Part shown: in pieces, positions 5,805-57,451 of the stretch | Numbering within the stretch: position 1 is the first letter of the stretch | How the letters are laid out: every line of letters starts with the position of its first letter | Assembly (NCBI GenBank): GCA_944320135.1 | Contig: CALUGI010000004.1 | Location: 1-64,000 of the forward strand | DNA from: an uncultured Phocaeicola sp. | Lineage (GTDB): Bacteria > Bacteroidota > Bacteroidia > Bacteroidales > Bacteroidaceae | Length of the DNA: 64,000 bases | Reading direction: 5' to 3' | Notes under the pieces: generated by a model | The model's database searches: none | What the model saw: the letters and a program-made list of their open reading frames with translations, nothing else | What the model was told of the DNA's origin: nothing | Position numbers and translations under genes: made by a program

Positions 5805-6791
5805 ATGAAAAAGATTTTTAGAACGCTGCTGTGCGCAACAATCGCATTGTCGGGAACAGCCGGTTGCGCAATGGCCCAACAGTCGGATACGAAAGCGGAA
5901 GAATCCGACGGAAGGCTGCCAAAGGTGTATATGTTCAAGGAAATCAACTCAGAGAACTTAGTGAAAATCTATCAGGCTTTAGGACGTGAAGCCAAAGGGA
6001 AAGTGGCGGTAAAGCTGAGCACCGGGGAGCCGGGCGGACACAACTTCCTGCAACCTTCGCTGATAAAGGAGCTGGTGCAGACGGTGAACGGAACCATTGT
6101 GGAATGCAACACGGCATACGGCGGAGGACGCGCCGACACGGAAAGCCATCTGAAAGCAGCAAAAGACCACGGATTCACCGCTGTCGCTCCGGTGGACATC
6201 ATGGACGCGGACGGAGAAGCGGCGCTTCCGGTGAAAGGCGGCAAGCATCTGAAAGAGGATTTCGTGGGGAAAAACTATCTGAACTACGATTTCACAGTGG
6301 TGCTCTCCCATTTCAAGGGCCATGCGATGGGCGGCTTCGGAGGGGCTATCAAGAACATTTCTATCGGCATCGCCTCGTCGAAAGGGAAAGCATGGATTCA
6401 TTCTGCCGGAAAGAGCAAGAACCAGGCTGGGGTATGGGACAACCTGCCTGCACAAGACGACTTCTTGGAGTCGATGGCCGAGGCCGCAAAAGCCATAGCC
6501 GACCATTGCGGCGAAAATATCCTCTATATCAATGTGGCAAACAACCTGTCGGTGGATTGCGACTGCGACTCGTCTCCCGAAGACCCCAAGATGGGAGACA
6601 TCGGCATCCTCGCCTCGCTCGATCCTGTAGCTTTGGACAAAGCCTGCACCGACTTGGTGCGTTCTTCGGACGACCACGGGAAAATCCATCTGATTGAGCG
6701 CATCGATTCGCGCCACGGAATGCACACGCTCGACTATGCAGAGCAATTGGGTATAGGCAGCCAGAAATATGAGTTAGTGCGCTTAGACTGA
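5805..6791 (+). CDS. DUF362 domain protein with signal peptide
   Basis: A 328-residue exported protein. The N terminus (MKKIFRTLLCATIALSG...AMAQQ) is a signal peptide, probably cut after AMA; a cysteine in TAGC could instead make it a lipoprotein. The body carries the DUF362 family pattern: VAVKLSTGEPGG near residue 65, NTAYGGGR near 105, SHFKGHAMGGFGGAIKNISIG near 170, and DPVALDKACTDL near 275. No ferredoxin-type cysteine clusters are seen, although DUF362 domains are often next to them. The molecular role of the family is unsettled. It is transcribed divergently from the ECF-like gene and ends in a bidirectional hairpin. Confidence 0.85.
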   Translation: MKKIFRTLLCATIALSGTAGCAMAQQSDTKAEESDGRLPKVYMFKEINSENLVKIYQALGREAKGKVAVKLSTGEPGGHNFLQPSLIKELVQTVNGTIVECNTAYGGGRADTESHLKAAKDHGFTAVAPVDIMDADGEAALPVKGGKHLKEDFVGKNYLNYDFTVVLSHFKGHAMGGFGGAIKNISIGIASSKGKAWIHSAGKSKNQAGVWDNLPAQDDFLESMAEAAKAIADHCGENILYINVANNLSVDCDCDSSPEDPKMGDIGILASLDPVALDKACTDLVRSSDDHGKIHLIERIDSRHGMHTLDYAEQLGIGSQKYELVRLD

Positions 6792-6792
6792 A

Positions 6793-6879
6793 CAGAAACG
6801 CCCGCCTTTCAAACAAAACGTCCGCATGTTTCGGCTGAAACGTGCGGACGTTTTGCGTAAAGGCGGCGAGATTCCGAAC
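6793..6879. repeat. 22-bp unit array A, also a bidirectional terminator
   Basis: Four units start at 6793, 6814, 6836 and 6858 (steps of 21, 22 and 22). Each has an A-tract, a GC-rich core and, in most, a T-tract. Cores of units two and three are reverse complements with one mismatch, so AAAACGTCCGCA (6815-6826) pairs with TGCGGACGTTTT (6843-6854); an outer stem CCGCCTTT/AAAGGCGG extends it. It lies between two convergent genes and would stop transcription from both sides. Confidence 0.7.
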
Positions 6880-6881
6880 GG

Positions 6882-8102
6882 TCAAAGTTCGCCCTTCCTG
6901 ATGGCCTCCATCACGTTGGCCGGCGCGCGCTGCGCCAGATATTCTTTTTTCATGAAGTCCATGTACGGAGCTGCGTGGGCGAAAAACCGATGATAGCCCT
7001 CGCAGAGGTAGTTCAGCCCCGGCTCTCCGGATGCAGTGCGCGCAAAACGGTTTTTCGGACATTCCCCGTTGCAGGCAAACAGGAACTCGCATTCCCGGCA
7101 TTGCGCCGGAAGCCCCTCCTGCTTCATCCGTCCGAACTGCTGCTGCCTTTCGCTGTACATCATCTCCACGAGCGTCTTTTCGTAAATGTTGCCGAGCTTG
7201 AACTCAGGAAACACGAAATGGTCGCACGAATACACGTCGCCGTTGAACTCCATCACCCCCGCGTGTCCGCACCATTTTCCCAACGTGCATACGCCCGGTT
7301 GTTCGCCTACCCAGTTGGCGAGAGTGGAATCGAAAAGCTGGATAAAATACTTTCCCACGTCATTCCGCACCCATTCGTCGAAGATGGCGCAGAGGAAGTT
7401 GCCCCATTGTTCGGGAGAAACGGAAAAACCGGCCAGCTTCTCGTTTTCCTCAAGCGGCGTGGCCAGATGCCGTCCGTCGGCATGAGGGCTTATCCGCTCC
7501 ACGATGGGAGTAAACTGGATATAGCGGCAGTTTATTTCCTTGAAGAAGCGATAGAAATCAAGCGGATAGTCTCCGTTGAAGTCGTTCACCACGGCCAACG
7601 CATTCCATTCCACCCCGTGTTTGTTGAGCAGGCGTATTCCCTGCATCACCTTCACGAACGAAGGTCTTCCCTGACGGTTCTTCCGATACTCGTCGTGAAA
7701 CTCCTGCGGCCCGTCGACGGACACTCCCACTAACCAGTTGTTCGCACGGAAGAACTCGCACCATTCGTCAGTAAGCAGCGTGCCGTTGGTCTGGATGCTG
7801 TTGTCGACGGTACGCCCTCCCGCATACATTTTTTGCAGTTCCACCACCCGCTTGTAGAAACTCAGCGGACGCATCAGCGTCTCTCCGCCGTGCCAAGTGA
7901 ACAGCACCTGCGGCATGGTCTGCGCCTCTATGTACTCTCGAATGAACTTTTCCAGCAGTTCGTCGCTCATTACGTGCTTGGCAAGGTTCTTATACAGGTT
8001 CGATTTTTCCAGATAATAGCAATAGTCGCAAGCCAAGTTGCACACGGCGCCCACAGGCTTGGCCATGACATACATAGGTTTGGCAAAAGGAGCGGTAATC
8101 AT
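6882..8102 (-). CDS. Radical SAM/SPASM protein, anaerobic sulfatase-maturase type
   Basis: A 406-residue radical SAM enzyme. The cluster motif CNLACDYCYYLE (CxxxCxxC) is at about residues 18-29. A SPASM-type cysteine-rich C-terminal half follows (CTLGKWCGHAGVMEFNGDVYSC near 270, then CRECEFLFACNGECPKNR near 335). Family members oxidise an active-site Cys or Ser of sulfatases to formylglycine. The closest type is anSME (chuR in Bacteroides). No sulfatase of the formylglycine type lies in the window, so it must act on proteins encoded elsewhere. It is the last gene of a leftward operon that begins with priA, 22 bases after the phosphatase gene. Confidence 0.9.
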   Translation of the reverse strand: MITAPFAKPMYVMAKPVGAVCNLACDYCYYLEKSNLYKNLAKHVMSDELLEKFIREYIEAQTMPQVLFTWHGGETLMRPLSFYKRVVELQKMYAGGRTVDNSIQTNGTLLTDEWCEFFRANNWLVGVSVDGPQEFHDEYRKNRQGRPSFVKVMQGIRLLNKHGVEWNALAVVNDFNGDYPLDFYRFFKEINCRYIQFTPIVERISPHADGRHLATPLEENEKLAGFSVSPEQWGNFLCAIFDEWVRNDVGKYFIQLFDSTLANWVGEQPGVCTLGKWCGHAGVMEFNGDVYSCDHFVFPEFKLGNIYEKTLVEMMYSERQQQFGRMKQEGLPAQCRECEFLFACNGECPKNRFARTASGEPGLNYLCEGYHRFFAHAAPYMDFMKKEYLAQRAPANVMEAIRKGEL

Positions 8103-11970: not shown

Positions 11971-12041
11971 TGGACTATGGTGTAATGGCAGCACAACAGG
12001 TTTTGGTTCTGTTTGTCTAGGTTCGAATCCTGGTAGTCCAA
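11971..12041 (+). tRNA. tRNA-Gln (UUG)
   Basis: A complete cloverleaf of 71 bases. The acceptor TGGACTA pairs with TAGTCCA, the anticodon arm is ACAGG-TTTTGGT-TCTGT with anticodon TTG, and the T arm is CTAGG-TTCGAAT-CCTGG. The discriminator is A. CCA is not encoded, as is common in Bacteroidetes. Confidence 0.95.
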
Positions 12042-12045
12042 CGAT

Positions 12046-12121: not shown

Positions 12122-12211
12122 TGCAGAATTTCCGGCGGGGTTTCCATGAAAGTTCCGCCGCTTTTCCACGGAAACGCCGCCGATTTTTCAGCAACGTTAC
12201 AACATGGCTGC
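12122..12211. repeat. 22-bp unit array B
   Basis: Clear 22-bp units at 12146-12167 and 12168-12189, with weaker ones before (12122) and after (12190). Each runs A-tract, GCCGCC-like core, T-tract. A further longer unit (about 12222-12248) ends in TTTTTCTTG, the same junction seen before the promoters of arrays C and D. It lies between tRNA-Gln and the alkaline phosphatase. Confidence 0.6.
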
Positions 12212-12339: not shown

Positions 12340-13722
12340 ATGAAACGATTGTTTTATTTGTGTGCGTTGCTGCTGGTTCACGTGTGCATATACGCCCAGC
12401 AAGCCAAATACGTGTTCTTCTTTATCGGCGACGGTATGGGAGTGAACCAAGTGAATGTCACCGAGATGTATCGGGCAGCCGTGCAGGGGCGCATCGGCGT
12501 GGAGAGACTGACTTTCGGCGATTTTCCGGCAGCCGGCATCGCCACCTCCTATTCCGCCTCAAACCCGATTACCGACTCTGCCGCCGGAGGCACCGCTCTG
12601 GCCACCGGAACGAAGACGTACAACGGAGCTATCGGGGTGGACGCCGACAAGCAGCCGTTGCAGAGCATCGCGCAGCGTGCCAAAGCAAGCGGGAAAAAGG
12701 TAGCCATACTCACTACGGTAGGCATCAACCACGCTACTCCCGCCGCCTTCTACGGACATCAGCCCAAACGCAGCATGTATGACGAAATTGCGCGCGAACT
12801 GCCCGCCAGCGGCTTCGACTTCTTCGCAGGCGCAGGCATCCTGAGGTCGAAAAAGAAAGACGTTCCCTCGCTGGAGCCCGTCATCGAGGAAGGCGGATAC
12901 GCCATAGCTCACGGAATGGACGAATATGCCTCAAAATCGGCTGATGCAAACAAAATCCTTCTCATCCAAAAGGAAGAAACAAACGACGGCAGCCTCCCTT
13001 ATGCAATCGACCGAAAAGAAAGCGACATGACTTTGGCGCAAATGACGGAAAGTGCCATCTCATTCCTGATGAAAGAGAAAAACAAGGGATTTTTCCTGAT
13101 GGCGGAAGGCGGAAAAATCGACTGGGCCTGCCACAACAACGATTTAGGAACGGCAGTCAACGAAATAATCGACTTTGACAATGCCGTGAAAGTGGCTTAT
13201 GAATTTTACAAGAAACATCCAAAAGAAACGCTGATTGTCATCTCGGCCGACCATGAAACGGGCGGCTTGGGCATGGGCACAAGCGGCTACAAGATAAATC
13301 TGAAGGCATTGGAGTGCCAGCGCGTATCGCAAGAGGAGCTTTCACGCCGCATCACCACCCTCCGGAAAGACAAAGACGTAACGTGGGAACAGGTGAAAGC
13401 GCTGCTTTCCGAAACGATGGGATTCTGGGACGAACTGCCTTTGACATGGAGCCAGGAACGTGCATTGCGCGACGAGTTCGAAAAGTCATTCGTGCAACAC
13501 AAAACCGTATTCACCGAAACGCTGTACGCCCGTTCGGAATCGTTGGCGGCTGCGGCGATAGAAGTGATGAGCCGCATCGCGCGATTGGGATGGACTACAG
13601 GCAGCCATTCGGCAGAATACGTGCCTGTATATGCCATAGGAGCGGAAGCGGAACTGTTCATGGGCAAGATGGACAATACGGACATTCCGAAACGTATCGC
13701 CAAAGCAGGAGGATACAAATAA
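12340..13722 (+). CDS. Alkaline phosphatase, secreted
   Basis: A 460-residue member of the PhoA-like alkaline phosphatase family. A signal peptide (MKRLFYLCALLLVHVCIYAQQ) directs it to the periplasm. Metal and active-site motifs are FFIGDGMGVNQ (about residue 30), TDSAAGGTALATG with the serine nucleophile (about 84-96), EGGKIDWACHNND (about 255) and SADHETGG (about 304). It releases phosphate from organic esters using two zinc and one magnesium ion. It is a single-gene unit, downstream of array B, and shares a strong bidirectional terminator with the tricorn-like gene. Confidence 0.93.
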   Translation: MKRLFYLCALLLVHVCIYAQQAKYVFFFIGDGMGVNQVNVTEMYRAAVQGRIGVERLTFGDFPAAGIATSYSASNPITDSAAGGTALATGTKTYNGAIGVDADKQPLQSIAQRAKASGKKVAILTTVGINHATPAAFYGHQPKRSMYDEIARELPASGFDFFAGAGILRSKKKDVPSLEPVIEEGGYAIAHGMDEYASKSADANKILLIQKEETNDGSLPYAIDRKESDMTLAQMTESAISFLMKEKNKGFFLMAEGGKIDWACHNNDLGTAVNEIIDFDNAVKVAYEFYKKHPKETLIVISADHETGGLGMGTSGYKINLKALECQRVSQEELSRRITTLRKDKDVTWEQVKALLSETMGFWDELPLTWSQERALRDEFEKSFVQHKTVFTETLYARSESLAAAAIEVMSRIARLGWTTGSHSAEYVPVYAIGAEAELFMGKMDNTDIPKRIAKAGGYK

Positions 13723-17501: not shown

Positions 17502-17609
17502 ATCATGCCTTTGCCTTACAAAGGTAAGCAAACTTCTTTTTAACAGCAAGAGAATGCGCCTGTCAGTATCTTCACTTTGTCAGACAAAACGTCTGCTCTC
17601 GGCCTGTCC

Positions 17610-17675
17610 GCAAAACGCCGCCGCTTTACGAAGGAAACGCCGGAACGTTACGGGAAAAATCTTGCGGCGTTTTTC
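17610..17675. repeat. 22-bp unit array C
   Basis: Three exact 22-bp units (17610-17631, 17632-17653, 17654-17675). The first core (AAACGCCGC) and the last (GCGGCGTTT) are complementary and could close a 66-bp hairpin. The array ends directly at the TTG of the next promoter. The array plus promoter is nearly the same as that at 22770-22865. Confidence 0.7.
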
Positions 17676-17706
17676 TTGCACAATCGTGCCTTTATGCTTA
17701 CATTTG
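17676..17706 (+). promoter_or_regulatory. Promoter after array C
   Basis: TTG (17676-17678), 20 bases, TACATTTG (17699-17706), a good Bacteroides promoter. It probably transcribes the DUF4254 and GT9 genes through the remnant at 17740-17831. Confidence 0.7.
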
Positions 17707-17739
17707 TAAAAATCAAAACAAAACCATAAAGAAAGAAAT

Positions 17740-19814: not shown

Positions 19815-19902
19815 TGGAAAGTCCAGGAAGTTTTGCGGAAAAGCGCGGACGTTTTCCAGCAAAAGTCAGCACGTTTTTCCGCAAAAGCACCCGCCTTTTA
19901 CC
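19815..19902. repeat. 22-bp unit array E
   Basis: Four exact 22-bp units start at 19815, 19837, 19859 and 19881. Each has three or four A, a GC-rich core and three to five T, ending in two or three C or G. Cores differ between units. The array lies in the 19515-20069 gap between two convergent glycan genes. The remainder of that gap shows decayed A/T-tract sequence and no convincing gene; the readable frames there are low-quality. Confidence 0.65.
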
Positions 19903-22708: not shown

Positions 22709-22769
22709 GGAATATTTTGCAGTAAAAAAATGATAACGCAGATAGTTTTGCAAAAACGCAACCGCAACC

Positions 22770-22834
22770 GCAAAACGCCGCCGCTTTATAAAGGAAACGC
22801 CGGGGTGTTGCAAAAAAATCTCGCGGCGTTTTTC
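22770..22834. repeat. 22-bp unit array D
   Basis: Units 22770-22791, 22792-22813 and 22814-22834 (22, 22 and 21 bases). It is nearly identical to array C over the whole array and the promoter that follows. First and last cores (AAACGCCGC / GCGGCGTTT) are complementary. It ends directly at the promoter TTG. Confidence 0.7.
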
Positions 22835-22865
22835 TTGCGCAATCGTGCCTTTATGCTTACATTTG
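22835..22865 (+). promoter_or_regulatory. Promoter after array D
   Basis: TTG (22835-22837), 20 bases, TACATTTG (22858-22865). The spacer differs from that of the array C promoter by very few bases. It lies 33 bases before the GT90 start. Confidence 0.72.
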
Positions 22866-22898
22866 TAGAAGAAGCAAAAATGCCAAATACAAAAAACG

Positions 22899-28159: not shown

Positions 28160-28271
28160 CCGAAACCGCCCGGAAAACCTGTCCTCAAAACCCGGCGGAC
28201 TTCAGCGCAAAGGTCTGCCGGGTTTTGCGCCAAAGTCCGCCGGGTTGTCCGCACAAGTCCGAGGGGAGTTA
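28160..28271. repeat. 22-bp unit array F
   Basis: Units at 28184-28205, 28206-28227, 28228-28249 and 28250-28271, all exactly 22 bases, plus a 24-base relative before them. The cores of the first and third units (ACCCGGCGGACT and AGTCCGCCGGGT) are perfect reverse complements. The A- and T-tracts are shorter than in the other arrays. It lies between rpsO and the AT-rich surface-protein island. Confidence 0.65.
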
Positions 28272-28286
28272 TTGTGAGGAGATTAC

Positions 28287-30704
28287 TTATCTATTCATAA
28301 CAAAAGGAATAGGTTCTGTTTGATGAGGTATTCCTGTCACTGAATTGACATTTTCATTGTACTTAACTCCCGTGATAGTATTAAGGTTACCACTATCAAA
28401 TGTACCGTCCAATACGCACGTTACATAAGTGGTTACAGACCCTCCAAATACAACTGTCTTTCTTATTGAGCATTCATTCTTCTGCACAGTCCAACTACCG
28501 CCATTAAAACTTTCATTGACATCTTCTGTTTCAATGACACCTCCTCCTTCTGTAAGTATCAAGGTTCTGACCTTATCTTCTCCATCAATATTTAGAGTCC
28601 ATGTTCCAGACAAATCTACAGGTTTGGTTGTAAACGATTGTACATTTCCCTTTATAGTTTTCCCGTCATACCCTATATACGCATAATAGCTGTATGCAGT
28701 GGAAGGCTTCAGATTTGGCAATCTGATGTCGTACTCCCCGTCTTTATAGTCTGTTGCAAAATTTAATGTTCCCTCATCACTCGACAGCACAATACCGCAT
28801 GTAGCACTCTGAGGAACATTTTCGTATGTGCATCTTACTGTCGCCGTTTTATCCGTAACATTAACGCACTCTCCGGTACTGCAAGCGGGAGTAAGCGTTG
28901 TAAAAGATTTCACATCCCCTTTTACGGTTTTCCCGTCATACTCTATATACGCATAATAACTGTATGCAGTGGAAGGCTTCAGGTTTGACAGGTTGATACC
29001 GTGTTCTCCGTCTCTATTGTCTGTCGTGAAATTTAGCATTCCATAATCGCTTGACAACGCAACACCGCATACTGCACTCTGAGGGACATTCTCGTATATG
29101 CATCTTACCGTTGCCGTTTCAACGCCAATATAGACATACTCTCCGGTACTGCAAGCGGGAGCAAGCGTTGTAAAAGATTTCACATCCCCTTTTATGGTTT
29201 TCCCGTCATACTCTATATACGCATAATAACTGTATGCAGTGGAAGGCTTCAAATTTGGCAGGTTAATGTCGCGCTCCCCGTCTTTATTGTCTGTCGTGAT
29301 ATTTAATGTCCCGTAATTGCTTGACAACGCAACACCGCATGTGGCGTTCTGTGGAACATTCTCGTATGTACATTTTACCGTTGCCGTTTCAACGCCAATA
29401 TTGGAACACTCTCCGGTACTGCAAGTTGGAGAACCGGTTTTGAATGTTTGTTTATCGGATTTGTATGTAAACTCAAGATTATTTACTTTGCATTTGTATA
29501 TTACAAAATAAGTATATTCAGTATCCGGTTTAAGTTCTTTTTCCGTAGCTGTTAATATATAATCATCTTTCCCTTCAGTATTTTCCGTTATGGCAGGAAT
29601 TTCTTTTTCCTTATCCGATTCATCGGCTGGGCTTAAAAGAAAGTAAGTTTTCCCACGCTTAGTTATTTCTGTTGTATGCAATTCCCCTTTTAAAGTGACA
29701 TTGGTTTGAACTTCTTCTATTTCAGGAGGCAATGCTATTAGGTTAATGCCATATTTTTTCCCATAATAATTTTTATATGCTTCAGCCTGTTTCGATTTTG
29801 GATTTTTTTCCTGGAGTTTCTTCTTTGCTTCTTCTCCTTTTTTCTTTACTGTAACAATATACAAGATGAAAGCGTCATCTCCGGGACTTCCTGATATTTC
29901 TTCTAATGAAGCCGTCACTCCGATTTCATCATCCTTTTCAAAACAATTGTCTGTAATTAATATTTCATCTTTCAATTCTGCATTATCTTGTATTCTGATT
30001 ATTGTATTGAGAAAAAATGCAATGCTTTGCTTAGCGATTTTACTCCATCCGTTGATTTCAACGTTGTTTTCCTCAAATGCGTTCAACAGTCTTTGAACAT
30101 TTGAACAAAATATACGAACTTTATTCCCTCTTTCTACATCAGATTCTTCTTGTTCCAGATTCAAAGATATACTTTCGCCTGCAGCATTAAAGACATCACT
30201 CCCTTCATCTTTTCCATTATAATGAATGAAATAAAGCTGTTCGCCATCAAAAACGCTTGCAATATTGCCTTCTTCATCTGTGCAGATTAAGTATTCAAAT
30301 CTATAGAAGGCAGAAGCTAATAGAATAGTATCATTTGCTGCAAATGTTCCTGCATTGCTTGCCATCATAACACTTCGATTGTCTGAATAGATTTTATTGA
30401 ACGGAATATTCGCATCATTGATTTCATAAAGTCTATAACCTTCCGTTTCACATCTTCCAATATTTGACTTTTCAAATATTACACTGTCAACTTTTTCTGT
30501 AACAATGTTATAAACCAAATCATCAATGCGTGTTTGCGATACGATTTTCCCGTTCTCTACACAATATGTAATGCTATCGATACTCTCTGTATAAAAGCCA
30601 TTGAAACTTTTGTCGTTCATGTGATAACGCATAAATTTCTGCGCAGTCATAATGTTTATACAGAAAACGGAAAACATTATGGCAAAAAGAAGTTTCTTAA
30701 TCAT
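28287..30704 (-). CDS. Large secreted protein with fibronectin III-like repeats
   Basis: An 805-residue exported protein with signal peptide MIKKLLFAIMFSVFCINIMTAQ. The N-terminal half (25-330) is not recognised. A diverged Fn3-like stretch (about 330-430) is followed by three 90-residue repeats (about 430-690), each with the pattern CSTGE..ATV.C.YENVPQ.A.CG and STAYSYYAYI.YDGKT. The repeats are also 270-bp DNA repeats. The last 100 residues (LSGTWTLNIDGEDKVRTLIL) look like a lipocalin-type or beta-sandwich domain. The likely location is the cell surface or periplasm. The DNA is far more AT-rich than its neighbours. It is the last gene of the island. Confidence 0.8.
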   Translation of the reverse strand: MIKKLLFAIMFSVFCINIMTAQKFMRYHMNDKSFNGFYTESIDSITYCVENGKIVSQTRIDDLVYNIVTEKVDSVIFEKSNIGRCETEGYRLYEINDANIPFNKIYSDNRSVMMASNAGTFAANDTILLASAFYRFEYLICTDEEGNIASVFDGEQLYFIHYNGKDEGSDVFNAAGESISLNLEQEESDVERGNKVRIFCSNVQRLLNAFEENNVEINGWSKIAKQSIAFFLNTIIRIQDNAELKDEILITDNCFEKDDEIGVTASLEEISGSPGDDAFILYIVTVKKKGEEAKKKLQEKNPKSKQAEAYKNYYGKKYGINLIALPPEIEEVQTNVTLKGELHTTEITKRGKTYFLLSPADESDKEKEIPAITENTEGKDDYILTATEKELKPDTEYTYFVIYKCKVNNLEFTYKSDKQTFKTGSPTCSTGECSNIGVETATVKCTYENVPQNATCGVALSSNYGTLNITTDNKDGERDINLPNLKPSTAYSYYAYIEYDGKTIKGDVKSFTTLAPACSTGEYVYIGVETATVRCIYENVPQSAVCGVALSSDYGMLNFTTDNRDGEHGINLSNLKPSTAYSYYAYIEYDGKTVKGDVKSFTTLTPACSTGECVNVTDKTATVRCTYENVPQSATCGIVLSSDEGTLNFATDYKDGEYDIRLPNLKPSTAYSYYAYIGYDGKTIKGNVQSFTTKPVDLSGTWTLNIDGEDKVRTLILTEGGGVIETEDVNESFNGGSWTVQKNECSIRKTVVFGGSVTTYVTCVLDGTFDSGNLNTITGVKYNENVNSVTGIPHQTEPIPFVMNR
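28627..29436 (-). repeat. Three 270-bp tandem coding repeats
   Basis: Three copies beginning near 28627, 28897 and 29167, each 270 bases and encoding a 90-residue Fn3-like unit. The copies at 28897 and 29167 are the most alike, so copy-number change by recombination is possible. Confidence 0.8.
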
Positions 30705-37233: not shown

Positions 37234-37251
37234 GAGCTGGCGCACGGGCAT

Positions 37252-37315
37252 AAAAAAAGGAGTACCGCTGTACTCCAACCTTTGTTAACCTTAAAATCTA
37301 ATACTATGAAAAACA
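37252..37315 (-). ncRNA. Candidate small RNA after sufS
   Basis: On the minus strand a complete promoter is followed by about 60 bases with no reading frame of note and an intrinsic terminator: GGAGTAC (loop AGCG) GTACTCC at 37259-37276, then seven T. The body contains TTAAGGTTAACAAAGG. It reads as an independent short RNA rather than the end of sufS, which lies 90 bases upstream. The start is estimated from the promoter. Confidence 0.6.
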
Positions 37316-37320
37316 CGTTG

Positions 37321-47894: not shown

Positions 47895-48055
47895 AGAATT
47901 TCCGAGTTTTTTTCGTCATTTCCCATAAATTCCACGGTTTTTCACTCAAAATACGATTCTTTCCAACATGTTATTGCCCGTAGGGGCGGACCCGTGTGTC
48001 CGCCCGAACACATTGACTGGCGTTATCCCGTGCGTGTTTTCGCCCTCCTTTTTGC

Positions 48056-48165
48056 CCGAAAACGCCGCCGCGTTCCGAAAAAACGTGCGGACGTTTCGCC
48101 GAAAACGTCCGCACGTTTGCAAAAAAGCGCAGCCGGTTTTTCACAAAAGCGGCTGCGCCCAAAGT
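48056..48165. repeat. 22-bp unit array H
   Basis: Five successive units of exactly 22 bases (48056, 48078, 48100, 48122, 48144). Cores of units two and three (ACGTGCGGACGT and ACGTCCGCACGT) are exact reverse complements, as nearly are those of four and five. It fills most of the gap between tRNA-Pro and the BACON lipoprotein gene; the rest (47895-48055) shows no feature. Confidence 0.75.
48121..48158 (-). terminator. Terminator of the SusCD operon
   Basis: On the minus strand GCGCAGCCG (48150-48158) pairs with CGGCTGCGC (48127-48135), followed by TTTTTT. It is formed by units four and five of array H and lies 33 bases after the last gene of the operon. Confidence 0.75.
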
Positions 48166-48190: not shown

Positions 48191-49198
48191 TTATTGTATT
48201 TGTTTGGTGATGGTGAAGTTGTAATAATGTTCAAGCCAACCGGCAGACTGCATGGTGCTCGGATTGATAGCATACAAAGAAAAGTAGAAAGAAGACGAAT
48301 CACCGGCATTTATGACAAACCTTCCGTCCGCCCAATAGAGAGACACCACAAGCTGTCCATTGAGTGAAGTTCTGCCATTCTGGGTGATTCCCGTCATCAT
48401 ATAATAACGGTTCGCATACACACCCACTATCTGGCCGCCCAGAATCGCAAATTGCCCGTTTGAGAAATCAACAGGTATCTGCGCTCCAAAAGTCAGTTCC
48501 CCCATAAGGTATCCTCCATATTGCTGGTCTTCTTCAATCTGAATCTGTCCGCTCATTTCACTTCCGTCCCCTCCAATATAAGAGCAATCCCAAGTGCCAA
48601 GAATATCGGCAGTCTCCATCTGGATTACATTCAAGCTATATACATTGCTCCCGAAGCGAACCTCCAAGCTGGTTGCCCTACAAGCTGCACTCGGCTCAAC
48701 ATTGAAAACGAACTGAGTTTTTCCACTTTCCGGATTGACTTCTTCACTATAGGATATCCAATCTTTCACTTCTTCCGGGATTTCTATTGAATAGTCAGTA
48801 TTCGTTCCTATGGTGAATGTACCCCCGTCATAACCAAAAATACGGTTCAAGGCACCTATGTCTGATATCAATCCCGCTTGCACGACAGGCACCTCCACAG
48901 ACTCGCCCTCTGCCGAAATTGTAACTATAGCCGAACGGCTTGTTACCTCTTGGGATTCCAAGACCGTTACATGCACCGTCGTCCCTTCCACTCTCACCTC
49001 GCACCAATCTCGGTTCGACACGGCCGTAATCCAGCCGAATCCGTCCACCGTAATGCTCCCTTCACCGCCCGCAGCCGTGAAGTTCAAGTCCGTGCTTTCT
49101 ATCTTCTCTATTCCGCCTTCTGCCGGCGTGTAGTCATCGCTACACCCCACCAACCCCGCACAAAGGAAAGGCATCAAAAAGTATAGTATCTTCTTCAT
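48191..49198 (-). CDS. BACON-domain lipoprotein
   Basis: A 335-residue surface lipoprotein. Signal MKKILYFLMPFLCAGLVGC, lipobox LVGC. One clear BACON domain (about 37-112: LNFTAAGGEGSITVDGFGWITAVSNRDWCEV...VEVPVVQAG) and a second related domain (about 115-200), then a beta-rich C-terminal domain (ILGTWDCSYIGGDGSEMSGQIQIEED...). BACON domains bind glycans or mucin and act as spacers in surface enzymes. Here there is no catalytic domain, so it is probably a surface glycan- or protein-binding member of the operon. It is the last gene, 21 bases after the DUF4302 gene. Confidence 0.87.
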   Translation of the reverse strand: MKKILYFLMPFLCAGLVGCSDDYTPAEGGIEKIESTDLNFTAAGGEGSITVDGFGWITAVSNRDWCEVRVEGTTVHVTVLESQEVTSRSAIVTISAEGESVEVPVVQAGLISDIGALNRIFGYDGGTFTIGTNTDYSIEIPEEVKDWISYSEEVNPESGKTQFVFNVEPSAACRATSLEVRFGSNVYSLNVIQMETADILGTWDCSYIGGDGSEMSGQIQIEEDQQYGGYLMGELTFGAQIPVDFSNGQFAILGGQIVGVYANRYYMMTGITQNGRTSLNGQLVVSLYWADGRFVINAGDSSSFYFSLYAINPSTMQSAGWLEHYYNFTITKQIQ

Positions 49199-56740: not shown

Positions 56741-56828
56741 CCAAAACGCCGGGGGATAAAAACAAAACGCCCCGGCGTTTCAATCGAAACATGCGGACAA
56801 TTCGATCGAAACGCCGGAGCGTTTTCAA
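56741..56828. repeat. 22-bp unit array I
   Basis: Four exact 22-bp units start at 56741, 56763, 56785 and 56807, with a looser 26-base relative upstream (56715-56740). Cores are mostly self-palindromic (ACGCCCCGGCGT). It ends 18 bases before the KdsD-like gene stop, at the downstream edge of that gene. The rest of 56378-56845 is AT-rich, holds the susC upstream region, and shows no gene. Confidence 0.7.
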
Positions 56829-56845: not shown

Positions 56846-57451
56846 TTACTTGCTCAGTTCGCGGGAACGCTCGCCCAAGTAACCGCCATGATGCCGTTTG
56901 CTGTATTCCTCAATGGTAAAGCCGGTGCGACGCATCGTTTCCACCACCAGAATGTCTCCGATAACGGTCATTACCGTGGTTGAAGTGGTGGGAGTCATGC
57001 CCAACAGACAAACCTCGTCAGGATGTCCGGTTGCCAGACAAATGTCGGCTACACGGGCCAGCGGGCTTTCAGGATTGCCGGTGATGACTATCTTCTTCAG
57101 CGACGAATCCAGATGCGCGGCCAGTTCGGTAAGCTCCACTATCTCGCGAGTCTTTCCGGAATTAGAAATCAGCAGCAGCAAATCGTTCTTCTGCAAGATT
57201 CCCAAGTCGCCGTGCTGGGCTTCGCTCGGATGCAGGAACACGGAAGGTATGCCTGTAGAGCAGAATGTGGTGGCGATATTCATAGCTATCTGTCCGGCTT
57301 TTCCCATGCCGCTCGTCACCAGCTTTCCGCCTTTTCCATGCACCTGCTCCACAATCAGCGACACCGCTTTTTCATACGCATCCGTCACCGGAATATCCAG
57401 CACGGCTTGCGCTTCGCGCTGCAACAGCTCCTTGATATTGTCTACAATCAT
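56846..57451 (-). CDS. SIS-domain sugar isomerase, KdsD-like
   Basis: A 201-residue single SIS-domain protein. GKAGQIAMNIATTFCSTGIPSVFLHPSEAQHGDLGIL (about 48-85) and LLISNSGKTREIVEL match arabinose 5-phosphate isomerases (KdsD/GutQ). The CBS pair found in longer relatives is absent; a single-domain form is known from Bacteroides fragilis. It would convert ribulose 5-phosphate to arabinose 5-phosphate, the first step to Kdo in lipopolysaccharide. This fits the surface-glycan genes of the window. It is 20 bases after the LOG-family gene. Confidence 0.85.
   Translation of the reverse strand: MIVDNIKELLQREAQAVLDIPVTDAYEKAVSLIVEQVHGKGGKLVTSGMGKAGQIAMNIATTFCSTGIPSVFLHPSEAQHGDLGILQKNDLLLLISNSGKTREIVELTELAAHLDSSLKKIVITGNPESPLARVADICLATGHPDEVCLLGMTPTTSTTVMTVIGDILVVETMRRTGFTIEEYSKRHHGGYLGERSRELSK

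What the first reader, a model, noticed from the sequence alone, without database searches (positions are those of the whole stretch)
48056..48165. A family of intergenic arrays with a strict 22-bp A-tract / GC core / T-tract unit
Eight arrays, in separate gaps, keep a step of 22 bases (two helical turns): 6793-6879, 12146-12211, 17610-17675, 19815-19902, 22770-22834, 28184-28271, 48056-48165 and 56741-56828. Each unit reads about AAAA, eight to ten GC-rich bases, TTTT, then a few spacer bases, putting the A- and T-tracts about 11 bases apart on one face of the helix. What is conserved is spacing and tract layout; the cores differ between arrays. Cores within one array are often reverse complements (units 2 and 3 here; units 1 and 3 at 28184 and 28228). 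This is the reverse of a CRISPR array, where repeats are constant and spacers vary. It suggests binding by an architectural protein, tandem terminators, or a repeat family that spreads by an unknown route.
Basis: seen in the sequence. Interest (0 to 1): 0.85.

Follow-up and report, generated by a model that had tools for sequence, protein, structure and literature searches.

The report
22-base arrays linked to HU proteins
Short palindromes repeated every 22 bases between the genes of this gut bacterium are real, and the same kind of array, each with its own 'word', sits beside genes for a family of histone-like DNA-binding proteins, which suggests a binding code not described in the papers we could search.

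Summary
All eight arrays keep a 22-base lattice (steps of 21 occur); six reach scores matched by at most 2 of 1000 shuffles, while 12146 (7) and 28184 (10) are weaker. The unit is AAACG-N6-CGTTT plus a 6-bp spacer. Nine unselected stretches of the window's genome (180 kb) gave 8 arrays, reversed control 0. In genus Phocaeicola, 27 of 61 genomes carry the strict two-unit motif, up to 185 times, with no control hit; 394 other sampled genomes of the class lack it.

The arrays favour gene 3' ends, and many can fold as terminator-like hairpins. The wider clue is that genes of the HU-HIG family (PF18291) often carry 22-bp tandem arrays with their own word: 40 of 107 loci against 10 of 400 random places. 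Of 17 further named records, 11 showed lag 22, 3 more lag 21, and unrelated lags none. In four of seven genomes tested the HU-adjacent word recurs in dispersed arrays.

Best reading: binding lattices of HU-HIG nucleoid proteins, placed at gene ends and possibly doubling as terminators. The protein that reads the window's arrays is not identified.

The parts
48056..48165 (.). The array of the finding: five 22-bp units; units 2-3 (100% over 16 nt) and units 4-5 (93% over 14 nt) form two hairpins, each running into six U on the - strand. Lies 25 bp past the stop of the BACON-domain gene 48191-49198 (-).
6793..6879 (.). Four-unit array filling the gap between two convergent genes (DUF362 gene 5805-6791 + and radical-SAM/SPASM gene 6882-8102 -)
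12146..12211 (.). Weak array, two good units, between tRNA-Gln (11971-12042 +) and the alkaline phosphatase gene (12340-13722 +)
17610..17675 (.). Three-unit array; shares a 104-bp segment (88%) with the array at 22770
19815..19902 (.). Four-unit array, perfect lattice score (8 of 8)
22770..22834 (.). Three-unit array, duplicate of the 17610 segment; one step of 21
28184..28271 (.). Four-unit array with weaker A/T frame; strong hairpin between units 1 and 3; 15 bp past the stop of gene 28287-30704 (-)
56741..56828 (.). Four-unit array 17 bp past the stop of the SIS-domain gene 56846-57451 (-); the finder saw no array beside the orthologous gene in the 29 other Phocaeicola genomes whose loci were fetched

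Best explanation
The arrays are binding lattices for a protein of the HU-HIG family (Pfam PF18291, an HU/IHF-fold nucleoid protein with many paralogues in some Bacteroidota). Each unit, a 16-bp near-palindrome AAACG-N6-CGTTT, would take one protein dimer, and the 22-bp step (about two turns) sets neighbouring dimers on the same face so that they bind side by side. HU-HIG paralogues have their own words. Many keep an array of their word next to their own gene, mostly upstream (likely autoregulation), and in some lineages further arrays spread through the genome, mostly just after stop codons. There the bound array would mark or insulate gene ends, and in RNA the same palindromes can fold into terminator-like hairpins. 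Shown here: the lattice, its genome-wide extent, the association of 22-bp arrays with HU-HIG genes, the sharing of words in four of seven genomes tested, the 3'-end bias and the folding. Inferred: binding, autoregulation, the role at gene ends. Not identified: which HU-HIG protein, if any, still reads the arrays of the window's own genome.
For: (1) Motif-free test: in the flanks of 107 distinct loci matching PF18291, 44-bp self-similarity of at least 28 occurs at lag 22 in 40 loci, lag 44 in 27, lag 21 in 15, lag 42 in 6, and at each other lag in 0-5. Controls at lag 22: 0 of 30 loci of an unrelated (SIS) gene, 10 of 400 random places drawn from four Phocaeicola genomes, one of them array-rich; Fisher p 2e-21. 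(2) In three array-bearing genomes whose HU-HIG loci had not been looked at before: Treponemataceae MAG 3 of 4, Prevotella vespertina 18 of 22 distinct loci (23 of its 28 matches fetched), Paenimyroides 1 of 3. (3) Seventeen further named records (Bacteroides, Phocaeicola massiliensis, Parabacteroides distasonis, Prevotella, Treponema; 16 not among earlier loci): lag 22 in 11, lag 21 in 3 more, none at any lag outside 21, 22, 42 and 44; 10 of the 11 lag-22 arrays lie upstream of the HU gene. (4) The word beside HU-HIG is the best match for dispersed arrays in Kaistella chaponensis (one PF18291 match in the genome), Prevotellaceae RUG849, Prevotella veroralis (5 of 6 arrays) and Treponemataceae (a 17-unit array whose first 11 units match, two of them in a tie, one HU-HIG locus and last 6 another). 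(5) HU-HIG protein similarity and array-word similarity correlate: r 0.21, p 0.009 over 27 loci without recent duplicates. (6) In Phocaeicola, 19 of 20 genomes with at least 10 strict pairs have a homologue of one HU-HIG protein at E <= 1.1e-42, against 8 of 41 others, one of those with a stop codon; the threshold was set after seeing the data, and at 1e-37 it is 19 of 20 against 17 of 41 (p 4e-5). (7) Predicted structure HU/IHF-like, pLDDT 93, best PDB match BVU_2165 (4fmr).
Against: The window's own genome has three full HU-HIG genes but no homologue of the protein in point 6, and no lag-22 array was seen beside the two of them that were fetched. A synteny check for loss found nothing and is uninformative. 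In Phocaeicola the point-6 protein lacks an AAACG array in 29 of 30 loci, and only 3 of 30 of those and 2 of 22 other Phocaeicola HU loci pass at lag 22, so there the link is only co-occurrence and may follow phylogeny. Eight genomes have that protein and almost no arrays. Word sharing failed in UBA4361 (0 of 4 arrays) and Paenimyroides (0 of 1); in P. vespertina (0 of 3) the best match was the sister species' HU array. HU-family proteins usually bind with little sequence preference (recalled). No binding data exist. Strong folding and long A/T runs at array ends fit terminators without any protein.
Confidence: 0.6

Rival explanations
1. The arrays are tandem two-way intrinsic terminators and nothing more: palindromic units with A-tract and T-tract flanks make RNA hairpins with U-tails in both directions, and the 22-base step is a by-product of tandem duplication of a terminator.
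For: Closer to the upstream stop than to the next start in 16 of 18 (own) and 33 of 41 (named) codirectional arrays, but only 5 of 9 in G008. Strong folding: 5 of 7 window arrays tested have z <= -3.5; z <= -3 in 26 of 28, 27 of 28 and 13 of 13 arrays of three relatives, 16 of 36 in the own sample, 5 of 10 in Prevotella. In arrays of three or more units of the named loci, T-runs of 5 or more in 74 of 120 last units against 54 of 441 other units, and A-runs in 72 of 120 first units against 39 of 441. In the window's genome the best unit pair is more complementary than chance, 0 of 500.
Against: 12 of 74 placed arrays lie between divergent genes. In codirectional gaps the U-tract end is hardly favoured: runs of 5 or more at the distal end 26 of 41 against 20 of 41 at the proximal end in named loci, 2 of 18 against 4 of 18 in the own genome. 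Direct, non-complementary units dominate in Kaistella, ADurb.Bin234 and P. veroralis. Cores pair no better than the vocabulary gives in three of five genomes. One-sided stem changes show no sense-strand bias (6 against 4). Arrays of the same step lie upstream of HU-HIG genes.
Confidence: 0.3
2. A REP/BIME-like mobile repeat family, spread by a transposase or by recombination, with no function of its own.
For: Very uneven copy number between species of one genus (0 to 185 strict pairs), a duplicated 104-bp segment in the window, near-identical arrays with the same spacers at different loci in P. barnesiae.
Against: Copies share a lattice and frame but not a sequence; cores and spacers differ between neighbouring arrays of one genome. 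The same lattice with unrelated words recurs beside HU-HIG genes. No target-site duplication or linked transposase was looked for.
Confidence: 0.08
3. Chance A/T runs in AT-richer intergenic DNA.
For: None after the counts.
Against: Control counts of 0-4 per genome against up to 194 matches with the loose motif, 0 in all 61 genomes with the strict motif, 0 in 394 other genomes, 1 or 0 in reversed sequence.
Confidence: 0.01

Closest known systems
HU/IHF superfamily, HU-HIG clade (Pfam PF18291; PDB 4fmr BVU_2165 as nearest solved fold)
   Same: The proteins beside the arrays match PF18291 and the predicted fold is HU/IHF.
   Different: HU is known as a binder with little sequence preference (recalled). 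Here paralogues appear to own specific words in a 22-bp tandem lattice.
REP/BIME elements of enterobacteria (recalled)
   Same: Palindromic units, extragenic, at gene 3' ends, both orientations, tens to hundreds of copies.
   Different: Units of 22 bp with a variable core and species vocabulary; arrays of the same step beside HU-HIG genes; no RAYT transposase link tested.
Rho-independent (two-way) terminators
   Same: A-tract, stem, T-tract, position after stop codons, stable folding.
   Different: Tandem 22-bp step, direct repeats in several genomes, arrays also upstream of HU-HIG genes and in divergent gaps.
Plasmid iterons / operator arrays, for example about 22-bp spaced Rep sites (recalled)
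   Same: Tandem sites at about two helical turns next to the gene of the presumed binding protein.
   Different: One set for each of many HU-HIG paralogues, and dispersed copies elsewhere.
CRISPR arrays
   Same: Regular spacing.
   Different: Inverse logic: frame constant, core variable; units are short palindromes. No cas genes were looked for.

Membership tests
22-bp HU-HIG-linked arrays (kind proposed here) | Tandem near-palindromic units at a 22-bp step | tested here: met
22-bp HU-HIG-linked arrays (kind proposed here) | Same word occurs next to an HU-HIG gene of the same genome | tested here: inconclusive
   Met in Kaistella, RUG849, P. veroralis and Treponemataceae; not met in UBA4361, Paenimyroides and P. 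vespertina. For the window's genome no lag-22 array was seen beside the two of three full HU-HIG genes that were fetched
22-bp HU-HIG-linked arrays (kind proposed here) | The protein binds the array | not testable with these tools
   needs EMSA or ChIP-seq
Intrinsic terminator | Stable hairpin running into a U-run, downstream of a gene | tested here: met
   48056-48165 on the - strand: two hairpins each running into six U; 5 of 7 window arrays folded have z <= -3.5, two do not; across the own sample only 16 of 36 reach -3
Intrinsic terminator | Transcripts end there | not testable with these tools
   needs term-seq
REP/BIME | Conserved repeat sequence linked to a RAYT (Y1) transposase | not tested
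   no RAYT search was made; sequence not conserved between arrays
CRISPR array | Identical repeats with variable spacers | tested here: not met
   in the window, frame of about 10 fixed positions with variable core; no identical direct repeats of 20 bp or more in the arrays
HU-HIG (proteins) | PF18291 match over the curated cut-off | tested here: met
   four array-adjacent proteins and one Phocaeicola homologue, 65-99 bits against a cut-off of 26.2

The most novel reading that the evidence does not exclude
HU-HIG proteins form a paralogue-specific DNA addressing system: a genome can hold as many as 28 PF18291 matches (Prevotella vespertina), most of those tested with a 22-bp-lattice array whose word differs between paralogue groups, and some words are copied to many gene ends, where the protein would build local filaments or loop anchors. 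That would be a bacterial chromatin code in which a histone-like family has become sequence-specific.
Probability: 0.4. Interest if true: 0.93.

Novelty: new variant of a known kind. Interest (0 to 1): 0.8.

Why it matters
HU-family proteins are (recalled) textbook examples of DNA binders with little sequence preference, and our searches of the paper library found no targets for the many HU-HIG paralogues of gut and oral Bacteroidota. If each paralogue reads its own 22-bp array, the targets of dozens of nucleoid proteins can be read straight from the genome and tested one by one. The dispersed arrays at gene ends would also be a new link between nucleoid structure and transcription termination in a major group of gut bacteria.

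Tried and rejected
Chance: rejected by reversed-sequence, reversed-pattern and shuffle controls. Conserved long hairpin as the sole cause of the lattice: the core-complementarity tests show enrichment in the window's genome and SI.B36 but not in P. excrementigallinarum, B. mediterraneensis and CAMFND; the symmetric-pairing measure was below shuffled values in four sets (two of them, G008 and excrementigallinarum, are one species). Sense-strand stem asymmetry: too few cases, 6 against 4. Array next to the Phocaeicola HU-HIG homologue: 1 of 30 loci, so local autoregulation there is not supported. Altered-spelling arrays in G086/G094/G087, which have the homologue but hardly any arrays: in 400 kb only one 5-mer (TGTTC in G086) stood out at lag 22. 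Position on the chromosome: 7 arrays (reversed control 1) in 20 evenly spaced stretches of B. mediterraneensis show no clustering, numbers small. HU-HIG on viral contigs: two single-protein scans confirmed none; two phage records match (not followed). Rfam: no family at the arrays. Literature: searches (search listings and starts of abstracts only; no paper was read) gave nothing on these arrays or on HU-HIG binding; one paper looked up is not held.

Known flaws: gene calls are my own hexamer-scored ORFs. In one search, 35 of 36 (own), 12 of 15 (G008) and 74 of 83 (named) arrays could be placed between called genes; two of the 35 fell inside a called gene. A few HU loci cut at contig ends (L388, L389, L394, L396, L403) had their match position mis-set. 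The side of each lag-22 array was scripted for 33 of 40 (23 up, 10 down); checking by hand against the strands moved one (L388) to downstream and gave all 7 undecided as upstream, so 29 of 40 upstream (p 0.003; the 30 of 40 is superseded). Array L251 may be a 7-bp repeat. Random-place controls come from Phocaeicola genomes only, so for the Prevotella, Treponema and other loci the other lags are the control.

Full report
What is there. The unit is AAACG, six variable bases, CGTTT, then six spacer bases. Against 1000 shuffles of each array the lattice score was reached 0, 7, 2, 0, 1, 10, 0 and 0 times, in window order. In intergenic DNA of the sampled genome the leading autocorrelations are AACG->CGTT at 10 and 32, AACG->AACG at 22 and CGTT->AACG at 12. 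A-tract to T-tract is 14 bases, so the 11-base claim is wrong. Steps of 21 occur. Arrays 17610 and 22770 are one duplicated 104-bp segment.

How many and where. The two-unit motif gives 18 matches over both strands of the window's genome and 0 in the reversed control. Nine unselected 20-kb stretches hold 8 arrays against 0, about 130 per genome. Only steps of 22 (33 arrays) and 21 (10) stand out among steps 16-30. In 61 Phocaeicola genomes (own included), 27 carry the strict pair, from 1 to 185 times, control 0 in all. In a class-wide sample, 0 of 394 other genomes carry a slightly stricter form. The genus is inferred: same-genus handles coincide with contigs of Ca. Phocaeicola excrementigallinarum, P. 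barnesiae, P. plebeius and Bacteroides mediterraneensis.

Vocabulary. Inside a genome the cores come from a small set in both orientations, for example CCTTGA/TCAAGG in P. excrementigallinarum, CACTTG/CAAGTG in B. mediterraneensis and TACCTC/GAGGTA in P. veroralis. The genome of the window has more degenerate units and GC-rich cores.

Position. In the window's genome the array is closer to the upstream stop than to the next start in 16 of 18 codirectional gaps (median 22.5 against 163.5 bp). In the named loci this holds in 33 of 41, in G008 in only 5 of 9. Divergent gaps hold 7 of 35 placed arrays in the own sample, 1 of 12 in G008 and 12 of 74 in the named loci; background gaps there are 40 of 153, 24 of 102 and 64 of 242 (tests, p 0.05 for the named set).

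Folding. Seven of the eight window arrays were folded on the - strand; five have z of -3.5 or lower and two do not. Array 48056 gives two hairpins, each running into six U. In the own sample 16 of 36 arrays reach z -3; in three relatives 26 of 28, 27 of 28 and 13 of 13; in two Prevotella species 5 of 10. Outer A- and T-runs are longer than inner ones in the named loci (74 of 120 against 54 of 441 for T of 5 or more; 72 of 120 against 39 of 441 for A); in the own sample the difference is smaller (9 of 29 against 7 of 73 for T, 4 of 29 against 10 of 73 for A), and codirectional arrays show little preference for the U-tract end. Core pairing above chance was found in the window's genome (0 of 500) and SI.B36 (2 of 500), and not in three other genomes.

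The HU-HIG lead. In low-copy genomes an array lay beside a gene for an HU-like protein: Kaistella, ADurb.Bin234 and RUG849, later P. veroralis and UBA4361. Four of these proteins and a Phocaeicola homologue match PF18291, HU-HIG. Kaistella has a single PF18291 match at E <= 1e-8 and it is the one beside the array. I then asked, in three array-bearing genomes whose HU-HIG loci had not been looked at, whether these genes have arrays: Treponemataceae 3 of 4, Paenimyroides 1 of 3, P. vespertina 2 of 23 with the AAACG frame, and 18 of 22 distinct P. vespertina loci when no frame is assumed.

Motif-free test. For 107 distinct loci (120 fetched, 13 dropped as duplicates) the best 44-base self-match in the flanks was taken at lags 14-45. 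Lag 22 passes in 40, lag 44 in 27, lag 21 in 15, lag 42 in 6, lags 14 and 20 in 5 each, all others in 0-3. Controls: SIS-gene loci 0 of 30, random places 10 of 400. Rates differ by group: P. vespertina 18 of 22, RUG849 4 of 5, ADurb.Bin234 3 of 4, Treponemataceae 3 of 4, P. veroralis 3 of 6, Kaistella 1 of 1, Paenimyroides 1 of 3, P. plebeius 1 of 3, UBA4361 1 of 5, B. mediterraneensis 0 of 2, other Phocaeicola only 3 of 30 and 2 of 22. In 17 further named records, of which 16 were not among the earlier loci, 11 pass at lag 22, 3 more at lag 21, and no lag outside 21, 22, 42 and 44 passes at all; most of these records come from one strain each of B. finegoldii, P. massiliensis and P. distasonis. 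Words are gene-specific and often palindromic: TTCACCATGGTGAA, CCTAAGTATCATACTTAGG, TGAAACGATCGTTTCA, TTTGACTTAAGTTAAA. 14 of 40 consensus units are more palindromic than their shuffles at 0.05, where 2 are expected. Arrays lie mostly upstream: 29 of 40 after checking the scripted sides by hand, and 10 of 11 in the further records.

Linking dispersed arrays to HU-HIG. The word beside the HU-HIG gene is the best match for dispersed arrays in Kaistella (1 of 1), RUG849 (1 of 1), P. veroralis (5 of 6) and Treponemataceae (1 of 1). It is not in UBA4361 (0 of 4), Paenimyroides (0 of 1) or P. vespertina (0 of 3, where the best match is the sister species' HU array). In the Treponemataceae array L159 the first 11 units match best, or tie for best (2 units), the word of one HU-HIG locus and the last 6 another. 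Protein identity and word similarity correlate across 27 loci without recent duplicates (r 0.21, p 0.009; with them r 0.47, p 0.0005). In Phocaeicola, a homologue of one HU-HIG protein at E <= 1.1e-42 is present in 19 of 20 array-rich genomes and 8 of 41 others (Fisher 1e-8); with a looser threshold of 1e-37 it is 19 of 20 against 17 of 41. This ignores phylogeny, the threshold was set afterwards, the window's own genome is the exception, and that protein has no AAACG array in 29 of 30 loci.

Structure. The Kaistella protein is predicted with pLDDT 93 and pTM 0.68 as an HU/IHF fold. Nearest solved chain: BVU_2165, 4fmr, then HU and IHF proteins.

Reading. The lattice belongs to a family of 22-bp arrays tied to HU-HIG genes. 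The window holds dispersed members at gene ends, several of which could also act as terminators. Whether an HU-HIG protein still binds them in this genome is open; degenerate units and the missing homologue would fit decay after loss of the protein, but this is inference and about 7% of the genome is missing.

Literature. Searches named in Tried and rejected returned nothing on the arrays or on HU-HIG binding. The HU-HIG clade was, as I recall, described by Burroughs and colleagues in 2017; that paper was not available and nothing is taken from it.

Noticed in passing
window 47957-48027: A dispersed palindromic repeat (GGGGCGGACCCGTGTGTCCGCCC core) right beside the 48056 array; copies of about 87-89% identity in three other stretches of the genome (L048, L052, L053).
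   Followed up: partly
window 17608-17711 and 22768-22870: A 104-bp intergenic segment duplicated at 88% identity, containing two of the eight arrays.
   Followed up: partly
window 28627-29425: Three 270-bp tandem repeats (83% alike) inside the 805-aa gene 28287-30704 (-), which has a purple acid phosphatase N-terminal domain match.
   Followed up: no
window 37249-37316 (-): A Bacteroidetes FopS small RNA (RF04319) by Rfam.
   Followed up: no
L411-L413 and L407-L409 (Prevotella vespertina): Two groups of three HU-HIG loci with nearly identical arrays within each group; the genome has 28 PF18291 matches at E <= 1e-6.
   Followed up: no
L237-L246: In Phocaeicola an HU-HIG gene next to an N-acetylmuramoyl-L-alanine-amidase-like gene and, in several genomes, a glycosyl-1-phosphate transferase gene (names recalled, no family search made); some (L239, L243) show repeats at lags 14 and 21 upstream instead of 22-bp arrays.
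   Followed up: partly
G078:C52:31590-32018 and L389: HU-HIG matches with an internal stop codon; G078 has no strict arrays.
   Followed up: no
L159 (Treponemataceae MAG): A 17-unit array outside Bacteroidota; the contig is from a metagenome bin and its assignment was not checked.
   Followed up: no
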